From the NCBI GenBank assembly GCA_029984855.1, contig JARQZL010000025.1, forward strand, positions 1 through 44,310: a DNA stretch of 44,310 nucleotides, in the 5' to 3' direction. Made by a program: the position numbers and the translations under genes. Of this stretch, positions 41,138 to 43,841 are shown in pieces (the first letter of the stretch is position 1; every line of letters starts with the position of its first letter). This DNA is from Archaeoglobales archaeon. GTDB lineage: Archaea > Halobacteriota > Archaeoglobi > Archaeoglobales > Archaeoglobaceae. Below the pieces are notes generated by a model that ran no database searches, was not told where the DNA came from, and saw only the letters and a program-made list of their open reading frames with translations.

Positions 41138-41365
41138 ATGGGCTGGAGGTACCGTTACCTCCGTAATGAACTCAAAAAGCTTGAACCCCGAAGAACCTAC
41201 GCGATTTTGCCCTCAGCCCTTCGACCGTTCAAGCGAGGGGATTTTACTGTAAGGGAGGCTGTCAACGCCGTGAGGTGCGCTGCACGAAACATGAACGCTG
41301 AAGTTTACGCAAGAGGCGGGAAGATCTACATCAGGTTCCGCCCCTCGTGTGCGTGCAACGTCTGA
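41138..41365 (+). CDS. Small basic protein of unknown function
   Basis: 75 residues: MGWRYRYLRNELKKLEPRRTYAILPSALRP start region, then REAVNAVRCAARNMNAEVYARGGKIYIRFRPSCACNV. About one residue in five is Arg or Lys. The second half looks like a helix and two strands with three cysteines (RCAA, SCAC). The promoter and the T-run terminator after it support a real gene. No family recognised. Confidence 0.65.
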   Translation: MGWRYRYLRNELKKLEPRRTYAILPSALRPFKRGDFTVREAVNAVRCAARNMNAEVYARGGKIYIRFRPSCACNV

Positions 41366-41407: not shown

Positions 41408-41523
41408 TTTAATTTATTCAATGTTAATTTGGTATCGAATTTTACAATGGTCTCACGTTCGGAAAATCCGGATGAAATGTTAGACTTTTGTAGAGTTTTG
41501 ATTTAAGAATCATTGGTGGTGGG

Positions 41524-41908
41524 ATGAAACTGGCTGTGTGTGCAGCCTTAGGAATCCTGAGAGATAAGTGGTGGAGTCATGTAACATGGCGCCTGGAGAG
41601 GTGCTTTTGAGGGGCTCCACTCAATCTGTGGATTTCATACAACTACACAAATGACGTAAAAAATAGGGGTAGTATATTTGCAAAACGTATGGACGGTACT
41701 TGGGCAGAGTGGACAATAATACAGGCGTGGATACAGGCGGCAAAGGAATACAGAGGGTTCTGACACATACGTTGCCGCTCTCGCAGCTGATGCTGATGGA
41801 AACGATAACACTTACGATTGCTGGAATGACCACATTTACGGGCATGGTTCACAGGTAGATCCCCCAGCAGATCCGCCATTCTTGTGGTATGGTAAGTATC
41901 AGTGCTGA
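41524..41908 (+). pseudogene. Decayed gene for a secreted protein
   Basis: GGTGGTGGG precedes ATG 41524 (MKLAVCAALGIL), but this frame stops at 41608. It is open again from 41611 as GAPLNLWISYNYTNDVKNR and ...TWAEWTIIQAWIQAAKEYRG, then shifts at 41745-41762 to DTYVAALAADADGNDNTYDCWNDHIYG, ending QC at 41908. Aromatic, Asn- and Asp-rich sequence looks extracellular. The next gene's ribosome site overlaps the final stop (TGAGGAGGTGA), so it was the first gene of this operon. At least two lesions: a stop and a frameshift. Confidence 0.65.
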
Positions 41909-41921
41909 GGAGGTGAATAAA

Positions 41922-42848
41922 ATGCGAAAACTTGTTGTTGGGCTAATTATTTTGTCGCTGATAGCTGTGGGGATTGCGTACATAATGACTGAGCAATCGG
42001 ATACAGAAATCCAACCGCTAACCATTAATAACGTGAAAGGATTCCGTACAACGTCTTTCGTTCTAAATACTACATTACCTAAGGTACCCAAGAAGTTGAT
42101 GGTATACGAATGTGTTGAACCAAAGGTTACGCTTGAATACGTATCACTACTGGCAAAGCGATTTGGTATGAATGAACAACCAGAAAAAGTATTTGATGAG
42201 TTCATTCTTACAGATGGCAACTACCACCTTGAAGTAAATACAAAATCCGGGAGAATTGCATACACCGATGCATCGAGATGGATGGTTGGAAATGACGTAG
42301 ATAAGCCATCTAATCTTCCATCTGACGAGAAGGCTATAAAGATAGCAAGAAACTATTTGAGTGAGAAAGGCTTAATGCCAGCTGACGCAATTCTCAGAGA
42401 TGTGACACATCCAAGGGTTGTAGCGATGGATAAAGAGGGAAGCACCATCGGAGTTGGCTTTGAGGATGTGAAAGTTTCATTCACACGCAGAATCAATGAG
42501 CTTCCAGTAGTCGGAGCGGGATCAAAGCTTGATGTGGAAATTGGAGGTAACGGGGATGTAATAAATGTCTATAAAGTATGGAGAAACTACAGACCATACA
42601 AGGAGTATTCAATCATTACGCCAGAGCAAGCCTTAGAAAAGTTGAAGGAAATTGGAGTATTTACAGGAATAAAAAGTGTTGATAAAGTGATAAACAGAAT
42701 CTATCTGGGATACTATACAAAGTCGGCAAGTGAAAAGCAAACGTATTTACAGCCGGTCTACGTTTTTGAGGGATATGCAAAAGGAGAAAATAGAACCGAA
42801 GAATTTAAGCAATATATTCCGGCTATTCCAGAACTCGGAGGGATATAA
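41922..42848 (+). CDS. Secreted or membrane-anchored PepSY-like protein, function unknown
   Basis: 308 residues from MRKLVVGLIILSLIAVGIAY, one N-terminal membrane helix, then an outer part. AIKIARNYLSEKGL, LPVVGAGSKLDVEIGGNGDVINVY, and QALEKLKEIGVF with YLQPVYVFEG resemble PepSY/YycI-type beta-helix repeats (inference). GGAGGTGA precedes ATG 41922. The stop TAA overlaps the next ATG (TAATG). Confidence 0.75.
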   Translation: MRKLVVGLIILSLIAVGIAYIMTEQSDTEIQPLTINNVKGFRTTSFVLNTTLPKVPKKLMVYECVEPKVTLEYVSLLAKRFGMNEQPEKVFDEFILTDGNYHLEVNTKSGRIAYTDASRWMVGNDVDKPSNLPSDEKAIKIARNYLSEKGLMPADAILRDVTHPRVVAMDKEGSTIGVGFEDVKVSFTRRINELPVVGAGSKLDVEIGGNGDVINVYKVWRNYRPYKEYSIITPEQALEKLKEIGVFTGIKSVDKVINRIYLGYYTKSASEKQTYLQPVYVFEGYAKGENRTEEFKQYIPAIPELGGI

Positions 42849-43309
42849 TGAAGAGAAAGTTTCTTGTAATGTCTGTGGTTGCCCTGGCATCCTGCACTCT
42901 TTTTATTTTGTTCATGCATTCAAACGAACCGAAAATAGATCAAGGGATAATCATCCACATGAACAACAACTATTATACAATACCACCAAATGAAGAGGAG
43001 TATGACGAGCTATCAAAAGAATGTATGAACATTCTGAAGTCTATAAACGGGCAATACAAGCTGGCAATAACCTTAGACGGACTAAAATCAATAAAAAGCC
43101 GAGAGAACTATGTTGAAATCGTTTTCCCTGAAAATATAACGCTAACAACGAATTATACAGTTATAAAATTGGAGGGGGCTGTGTTCATGTTGAGCGGAGA
43201 ATACGAGGGGAAAATTTTTACATACAGAGGTAGAGTGGTGGGCGTCTGGAGTTCTGATCAAAGCTTTGATAGATTGAGGGGGATGGTAGAAACGTTTATT
43301 CGGCAGTGA
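42848..43309 (+). CDS. Membrane-anchored protein of unknown function
   Basis: 153 residues. An N-terminal helix (VMSVVALASCTLFILFMHS) then a small outer domain with alternating strands: IIIHMNNNYYTIPPNEEEY, NYVEIVFPENITLTTNYTVIKLEGAVFMLSGEYEG, RGRVVGVWSS. Two Asn-x-Thr sequons. No family is recognised. Start codon overlaps the preceding stop. Confidence 0.75.
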   Translation: MKRKFLVMSVVALASCTLFILFMHSNEPKIDQGIIIHMNNNYYTIPPNEEEYDELSKECMNILKSINGQYKLAITLDGLKSIKSRENYVEIVFPENITLTTNYTVIKLEGAVFMLSGEYEGKIFTYRGRVVGVWSSDQSFDRLRGMVETFIRQ

Positions 43310-43322
43310 GGGGATTAACTCC

Positions 43323-43841
43323 ATGCGTGAAAAAGAAAGAATGTTTGAAGAAAGTGAGAACGGGATAATTCTTCTTGGCAAACGGGATCTCAAAGTGTTA
43401 TCATCAGATATAAGAGTTGAGATTCTCAAAAAGCTTGATTCTGGATGTAAAACACTTAGAAAATTAGGCAATGAGCTAAATCTTCCAACATCAACTGTAC
43501 ATGAGAATCTCACCATTCTTGTTGAGTCGGGCTTTGTTGAGAAAAGAAATGAGGGTAGCAAGTGGGTTTACTACGAGCTGACGGAGAAGGGGAAGAGTGT
43601 CCTTCACCCCCATGAAAAGGTAAAGATAATATTGCTTCTCTCCTCTGCTATACTGAGCTATGCTGGAGGGATCATGGAGATATACCTGTTCCTGCAGGGA
43701 ACACCTGAAGAGGGTGTGAAGGGAGCTCCTTTCCATCCAGAACACCTGATTTTGGGCTTCGTCCTTGCAGTAATTGGCACTATCCTGTTGTATTCAGGTT
43801 TGAGAAAAGCTCTTAATGATGTTTCAATTAGAACACATTAA
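43323..43841 (+). CDS. Membrane-tethered winged-helix transcription regulator
   Basis: 172 residues. Residues ~20-95 form an ArsR/MarR-type winged helix: VLSSDIRVEILKKLDSGCKTLRKLGNELNLPTSTVHENLTILVESGFVEKR (recognition helix LPTSTVHENL), then a wing and KWVYYELTEKG. Two C-terminal membrane helices (IILLLSSAILSYAGGIMEIYLFL; ILGFVLAVIGTILLYSG) tether it. Last gene of the accessory operon, so a sensor-regulator for the secreted proteins upstream is plausible. GAGGGGATT precedes the start. Confidence 0.85.
   Translation: MREKERMFEESENGIILLGKRDLKVLSSDIRVEILKKLDSGCKTLRKLGNELNLPTSTVHENLTILVESGFVEKRNEGSKWVYYELTEKGKSVLHPHEKVKIILLLSSAILSYAGGIMEIYLFLQGTPEEGVKGAPFHPEHLILGFVLAVIGTILLYSGLRKALNDVSIRTH

What the first reader, a model, noticed from the sequence alone, without database searches (positions are those of the whole stretch)
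41524..43841. Accessory locus of secreted proteins with a membrane-tethered regulator
Decayed secreted protein, PepSY-like membrane protein, small anchored protein and a winged helix with two membrane helices, in one direction with overlapping or close starts. None has a known function. The design suggests an envelope-sensing system in which the outer proteins tell the membrane regulator what to express.
Basis: inference. Interest (0 to 1): 0.6.

Follow-up and report, generated by a model that had tools for sequence, protein, structure and literature searches.

The report
Secreted enzyme, membrane partner, tethered regulator
In this heat-loving archaeon four neighbouring genes are the remains of a widely shared, self-regulated module: a secreted enzyme-like protein (here broken by deletion), the membrane-anchored protein that almost always accompanies it, a small anchored helper, and a DNA-binding switch fixed in the membrane that probably controls its own operon.

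Summary
The genes are real and co-directional. (1) The decayed secreted gene is a DUF6345 (PF19872) remnant; a ~387-bp deletion removed its invariant His and Cys, and small indels follow. An intact, syntenic copy exists in a same-genus complete genome. (2) The "PepSY-like" protein has no PepSY match; its good-confidence model matches bacterial YycI/YycH. (3) The small anchored protein is conserved, sometimes fused to the YycI-like protein. (4) The winged helix with two C-terminal membrane helices is genuine.

The set is strongly co-conserved. In the Halobacteriota sample 25 of 26 DUF6345 loci carry a YycI-like partner, once fused in one chain. A membrane-tethered winged helix is adjacent in roughly 40%. 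A palindrome, TTCGG-N5/6-CCGAA, precedes 9 of 10 loci with a co-directional regulator (background 1-4%), so autoregulation is likely. The module moves between genera; DUF6345's core was lost by three different deletions while partner and regulator persisted; the partner also occurs in tandem arrays. This suggests a secreted enzyme with a cognate membrane-anchored inhibitor/immunity or sensor partner, read by the tethered regulator. The envelope-sensing idea is partly supported; signal direction and enzymatic activity are untested.

The parts
41458..41472 (.). palindromic operator candidate TTCGGAAAATCCGGA (consensus TTCGG-N5/6-CCGAA)
   Evidence: Conserved upstream block in five loci of three genera; exact pattern found at this locus in this genome, and A-spacer form only at this locus in G019, G020, G040; found in 9 of 10 loci with co-directional wHTH, background 1-3.5%.
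41474..41493 (+). BRE/TATA-like promoter element GAAATGTTAGACTTTTGTAG just downstream of the palindrome
   Evidence: Conserved with the palindrome in all five Archaeoglobaceae loci; archaeal promoter reading is inference.
41524..41908 (+). pseudogene of a secreted DUF6345 (PF19872) protein: start of the signal region kept, residues ~13-141 deleted (removing the invariant His and Cys), further small indels
   Evidence: PF19872 51 bits with 3 stops, 4e-15 for the frame-corrected tail, alignment with intact G019 gene.
41922..42848 (+).
   Evidence: AlphaFold model pLDDT 81; Foldseek PDB: 5coz 2.5e-8, YycH 8e-8, YycI 2o3o ~1e-6, prob 1.00; dN/dS 0.14 against G019.
42848..43309 (+). small single-TM anchored protein, 153 aa; fused to the YycI-like protein in G012/L124 and L125
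   Evidence: Alignment; profile hits to fused proteins L124 9e-44 and L125 2e-57 (both used in the profile) and to separate Methanoculleus-type ORFs 3e-10 to 3e-15 (not used); dN/dS 0.19.
43323..43841 (+). membrane-tethered winged-helix regulator (N-terminal ArsR-type wHTH, two C-terminal TM helices), 172 aa
   Evidence: PF01022/PF14947 above cut-off; TM at 100-118 and 142-160; orthologs in the same place in G019, G040, G020, G044.

Best explanation
The locus is a horizontally exchanged, self-regulated envelope module. SHOWN by sequence comparison: a secreted DUF6345 protein is almost always encoded next to a YycI/YycH-fold membrane-anchored protein; a small anchored protein and a membrane-tethered wHTH regulator are recurrent further members; operons with the co-directional regulator share a palindromic site just upstream of the promoter; in this genome the DUF6345 gene is dead while the other three are intact and under purifying selection. 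INFERRED: DUF6345 is a His/Cys (clan CD-like) peptidase-type enzyme acting outside the membrane. Its YycI-like partner binds it on the outer face (inhibitor, immunity or chaperone) and, through its single TM helix as YycHI do with WalK, sets the state of the two-TM wHTH, which binds the palindrome and adjusts expression of the operon. In the window's organism only the partner and regulator half survives.
For: PF19872 remnant and intact syntenic copy. YycI-like partner in 25 of 26 sampled Halobacteriota DUF6345 loci, in 19 of the 20 wider regions fetched (the exception L158 is the same broken gene as L101), and fused in one chain in L114. Small protein fused to the YycI-like protein in L050/L124 and L125. 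YycI/YycH fold and Pfam YycI above cut-off in a family member (31.9 bits vs 29.7). wHTH adjacent in 10 Archaeoglobales loci plus a different tethered wHTH in L062 and in L093, L099, L100, L112, L107, L125, L155, L173 elsewhere. Palindrome in 9 of 10 co-directional operons against 1-3.5% background. Invariant GH and C in 30/30 DUF6345 proteins; hhalign against Peptidase_C25 p=0.0013 with both residues in register, controls 0.083-0.63. dN/dS 0.14-0.23 for the three surviving genes.
Against: No functional data. The DUF6345 model is poor (pLDDT 52) and its clan CD matches are not significant (best E 0.08). Many DUF6345-YycI loci lack an adjacent tethered regulator, so the regulator is not obligatory, and wHTH relatives occur without the pair. 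No kinase or WalK homologue was seen at the locus. Mild excess of amino-acid changes in the window lineage (wHTH 14 vs 5, YycI-like 14 vs 7, small 9 vs 9) may mean relaxed constraint after loss of DUF6345. The palindrome consensus was derived from five of the ten loci it was scored on; the independent part is 4 of 5, and those four come from one family.
Confidence: 0.55

Rival explanations
1. Toxin/immunity-type module: DUF6345 is a secreted antagonistic enzyme and the YycI-like protein is its membrane-anchored immunity protein; the wHTH only controls expression. The window keeps 'orphan immunity' after loss of the effector.
For: Effector broken or absent with partner intact in 8 Archaeoglobales loci against 2 the other way; catalytic core removed by different deletions in the window, G020 and G044; 4-5 diverged tandem partner copies behind one DUF6345 (63-84% identity, dN/dS well below 1); horizontal transfer between genera (4-fold identity MetRS 0.34 vs YycI-like 0.66, wHTH 0.63).
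Against: 8 vs 2 is not significant alone (two-sided sign test about 0.11); DUF6345 itself is under strong purifying selection (dN/dS 0.07), not diversified like most polymorphic toxins; no target or toxicity evidence; a tethered regulator is unusual for such systems.
Confidence: 0.22
2. Secreted enzyme plus dedicated chaperone/propeptide-like partner (PepSY logic) used for processing of the cell's own surface proteins; the tethered wHTH senses something unrelated to the pair.
For: A paralogous locus in the same genome pairs Peptidase_C25 with a true PepSY/DUF4901 protein next to a wHTH-2TM; many DUF6345-YycI pairs have no adjacent regulator.
Against: Partner persists without the enzyme in several genomes, which a pure chaperone should not; the palindrome and regulator travel with the pair.
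Confidence: 0.15
3. Decaying accessory locus with no present function in this genome; the gene set is only passively retained.
For: DUF6345 is dead; slightly faster evolution of wHTH and YycI-like in the window lineage.
Against: Three intact ORFs, dN/dS 0.14-0.23 against G019; conserved operator and promoter block; same retention seen in G020 and G044.
Confidence: 0.08

Closest known systems
YycH/YycI (WalH/WalI), auxiliary proteins of the WalRK system
   Same: Short cytoplasmic N-terminus, single N-terminal TM, extracytoplasmic domain of the same fold; partner of a membrane regulator; in B. subtilis and S. aureus they act on WalK, most probably via TM helices (PMC7355866).
   Different: No histidine kinase at the locus; the candidate membrane partner is a one-component wHTH with two TM helices; obligate neighbour is a secreted DUF6345 protein; found in archaea.
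ArnR/ArnR1 of Sulfolobus and other transmembrane transcription regulators
   Same: N-terminal HTH and two C-terminal TM helices, one-component membrane-bound regulator (PMC6396743, PMC10269533).
   Different: No HAMP or sensory domain: TM1 follows the wing almost directly and the outer loop is about 20 residues; sits in an operon with outer proteins that could supply the sensing.
Clan CD cysteine peptidases (C25 gingipain, C11, C14, C13)
   Same: His-Gly at the end of one hydrophobic strand and Cys at the end of the next, invariant in 30 DUF6345 proteins; weak profile match to Peptidase_C25 with the pair in register.
   Different: No Pfam peptidase match, fold not confirmed, activity unknown; dedicated YycI-like partner.
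PepSY/YpeB and peptidase-propeptide inhibitors
   Same: Membrane-anchored extracytoplasmic partner encoded beside a secreted peptidase-like protein; the C77 locus of this genome has a real PepSY version.
   Different: The window protein has no PepSY or FTP domain match.

Membership tests
DUF6345 (PF19872) | Match above the curated cut-off | tested here: met
   Window remnant 51 bits and 29 bits vs 26.9; intact G019 247 bits. The window gene is a pseudogene.
Clan CD cysteine peptidase | His-Gly then Cys in this order, each at the C-terminal end of a hydrophobic strand | tested here: met
   G100-H101 and C138 30/30; strands 72-79 and 109-113 at H78 and before C115 in the low-confidence model; hallmark as described in PMC4357240.
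Clan CD cysteine peptidase | Caspase/haemoglobinase fold | tested here: inconclusive
   Model pLDDT 52; CHAT, caspases, MALT1 and a metacaspase among top hits but best E 0.08; hhalign to C25 p=0.0013.
Clan CD cysteine peptidase | Peptidase activity dependent on His and Cys | not testable with these tools
   Needs purified protein.
YycI/YycH | Fold of the extracytoplasmic domain | tested here: met
   Foldseek prob 1.00, E 8e-8 (YycH) and ~1e-6 (YycI), target-normalised TM about 0.55 for YycI.
YycI/YycH | Pfam YycI match above cut-off | tested here: not met
   Window protein none; relative L053 31.9 vs 29.7 bits, L126 and L117 below.
YycI/YycH | Encoded with and acting on WalK/WalR | tested here: not met
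   No kinase or response regulator among neighbours read.
PepSY/YpeB | PF03413 or PF14620 match | tested here: not met
   No hit for window protein; only the C77 paralogous locus matches.
Transmembrane transcription regulator (one-component) | DNA-binding domain plus TM segment in one protein | tested here: met
   HTH_5/HTH_45 above cut-off, TM 100-118 and 142-160.
ArnR family | HAMP and sensory domain between HTH and TM helices | tested here: not met
   No room: HTH ends near residue 98, TM1 at 100.
Toxin-immunity pair | Effector always with cognate partner; partner can persist or multiply without effector | tested here: inconclusive
   25/26 paired; 8 vs 2 loss asymmetry; tandem partner arrays.
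Toxin-immunity pair | Toxicity neutralised by the partner | not testable with these tools
   Needs expression experiments.

The most novel reading that the evidence does not exclude
An undescribed archaeal signalling and protection module: a secreted clan CD-type peptidase is held on the cell surface by a YycI-fold protein whose TM helix directly gates a membrane-embedded wHTH repressor/activator. It would be a kinase-free counterpart of the WalK-YycHI circuit, with membrane-tethered regulators of at least two architectures recruited to the same pair.
Probability: 0.3. Interest if true: 0.8.

Novelty: new variant of a known kind. Interest (0 to 1): 0.62.

Why it matters
DUF6345 is a family without known function, and neither its name nor its accession occurs in the searchable papers. 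The locus gives it a near-obligate partner, a predicted catalytic pair, a regulator and a DNA site, so its role becomes directly testable. It also places the YycI/YycH fold, known from regulation of an essential kinase in Gram-positive bacteria, in archaea beside a kinase-free membrane regulator. How membrane-tethered transcription factors receive outside signals in archaea is an open question.

Tried and rejected
PepSY membership of the window protein: no match in Pfam or NCBIfam. Viral origin: a scan of viral contigs with the DUF6345 alignment found no relative. Scanning genomes with the broad DUF6345 alignment, and viral contigs with the YycI-like alignment, failed because no stretch was conserved enough. 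Solved-structure sequence search with DUF6345 gave only chance hits; with the YycI-like profile the best hit was 5coz at 0.012. Sigma-70 promoter scan is not meaningful for an archaeon. Literature search for DUF6345 and PF19872 found none; the archaeal dark-matter survey does not mention YycI or caspase. Sequencing error as the cause of the decay: rejected because a ~387-bp deletion is involved and G020 and G044 carry different deletions.

Full report
OBSERVATION. Gene spacing is operon-like: the YycI-like stop codon overlaps the start of the small gene by one base, and 13 bases separate the small gene from the wHTH gene. The real start of the YycI-like gene is most likely ATG 41922, preceded by GGAGGTGA, not the longer ORF start at 41889.

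WHAT THE DECAYED GENE IS. PF19872 (DUF6345) rings at 41582-41893 with 51 bits and three stops. A frame-corrected tail matches at 4e-15. In G019, a complete genome of the same genus, the same place (between the methionyl-tRNA synthetase and cobyric-acid synthase genes) holds an intact 256-aa secreted DUF6345 followed by the same three genes. Alignment shows that the window lost residues about 13-141 in one deletion, with small indels after it. G020 keeps only the last 40 residues. G044 has a different, in-frame deletion that joins the signal region to the last 25 residues. All three remnants lack the two residues that are invariant in 30 diverse family members, GH(101) and C(138).

WHAT DUF6345 MAY DO. 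His-Gly and Cys at the ends of successive hydrophobic strands is the hallmark of clan CD cysteine peptidases (PMC4357240). Profile comparison with archaeal Peptidase_C25 gives p=0.0013 with both residues in register; unrelated profiles give 0.083-0.63. The AlphaFold model from six sequences is weak (pLDDT 52). Its best PDB matches include a CHAT protease, caspases, MALT1 and a metacaspase, but none is significant. I therefore call it a predicted clan CD-type enzyme, not a proven peptidase.

WHAT THE 'PepSY-LIKE' PROTEIN IS. It has no PepSY match. The model from eight sequences is good (pLDDT 81). Foldseek gives 5coz (2.5e-8), YycH in the WalK-YycH model (8e-8) and YycI chains (about 1e-6), all with probability 1.00. 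A family member passes the Pfam YycI cut-off. It has one N-terminal TM helix and an outer domain, the topology of YycH/YycI, which regulate the kinase WalK and probably contact it through their TM domains (PMC7355866).

CO-CONSERVATION. Of 57 Archaeoglobales genomes, 14 have the YycI-like gene and 13 have DUF6345, with the pair adjacent in nearly every case. In a sample of 393 Halobacteriota genomes 49 have DUF6345. A YycI-like gene lies beside it in 25 of 26 loci examined; the exception is a DUF6345 gene that is itself broken. One locus fuses both in a single chain (L114). The small protein is a separate gene in Methanoculleus and relatives and is fused to the YycI-like protein in an Archaeoglobales genome and in L125, a contig filed under Cloacimonadota. 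A membrane-tethered wHTH is adjacent in ten Archaeoglobales loci. Loci elsewhere have the same type (L093, L099, L100, L112, L107, L125), and L062 and L155 have a second architecture with the TM before the wHTH. Published counts are 1,384 such regulators in 404 archaeal species (PMC10269533), so chance adjacency would be of the order of 1% of loci (my estimate).

REGULATION. The five Archaeoglobaceae loci share an upstream block, TTCGGAAAATCCGAA plus a BRE/TATA-like stretch, although the flanking DNA is not alignable. The A-spacer form occurs only at this locus in G000, G019, G020 and G040. Allowing one mismatch and a 4-6 nt spacer, the palindrome precedes DUF6345 in 9 of 10 loci with a co-directional wHTH, against 1% in shuffled and 3.5% in random stretches. 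Four of those nine are from another family and were not used to define it. Loci without an adjacent wHTH show it in 4 of 22. Three of six divergent loci carry a different exact palindrome, GTTAxA...TxTAAC. Autoregulation by the wHTH is the simplest reading; binding is not shown.

EVOLUTION. At four-fold sites the window and G040 (another genus) agree at 34% in methionyl-tRNA synthetase, close to saturation, but at 66% in the YycI-like gene and 63% in the wHTH. DUF6345 agrees at 64% between G019 and G040. The module therefore moved between genera. The three surviving genes are under purifying selection (dN/dS 0.14, 0.19, 0.23), with a mild excess of changes in the window lineage. DUF6345 is broken or missing with an intact partner in eight Archaeoglobales loci; the opposite holds in two. 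Two loci elsewhere have four or five diverged tandem partner copies behind one DUF6345.

INTERPRETATION. The data support a module of a secreted enzyme and its membrane-anchored partner under a tethered, probably autoregulating wHTH. Retention and multiplication of the partner point to an inhibitor or immunity role, and its fold and the regulator's design point to signalling. The two can be combined if the partner both binds the enzyme and transmits its state to the wHTH.

IDENTITIES. From memory only, the sizes of G019, G001, G022 and G359 match Archaeoglobus veneficus, A. fulgidus, Ferroglobus placidus and Methanosarcina acetivorans.

Noticed in passing
L012:12354-14471 (own genome C77): Parallel locus: Peptidase_C25-like secreted protein, true PepSY/DUF4901 protein and a wHTH-2TM regulator side by side; suggests the peptidase-partner-tethered-wHTH logic was assembled more than once.
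   Followed up: partly
L159:1012-6164 and L172:3928-10737: One DUF6345 gene followed by four or five tandem YycI-like paralogs (63-84% identical).
   Followed up: partly
L049:5221-5439 and L061:6915-7193: Two independent in-frame core deletions of DUF6345 that keep the signal peptide and the C-terminal end as a 72- or 92-aa secreted ORF; could be neutral or a small derivative with a function of its own.
   Followed up: no
L114:319-3606: Long protein with DUF6345 (531-706) and YycI-like (736-989) domains in one chain.
   Followed up: partly
L062:3710-4357 and L155:7021-7782: A second kind of membrane-tethered wHTH (TM before the DNA-binding part) beside DUF6345-YycI pairs.
   Followed up: partly
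L125: Complete module on a contig filed under Cloacimonadota; transfer to bacteria or a misbinned archaeal contig.
   Followed up: no
L013 (own genome C63) and L063 (own genome C24): Two further DUF6345-YycI loci in the same genome, one fully decayed and one with the YycI-like gene split.
   Followed up: partly
L058:1782-5126: DUF6345-YycI pair next to two secreted proteins that look like cysteine peptidases with a propeptide.
   Followed up: no
window 41138-41365: 75-aa ORF between the methionyl-tRNA synthetase gene and the locus, no Pfam match.
   Followed up: no
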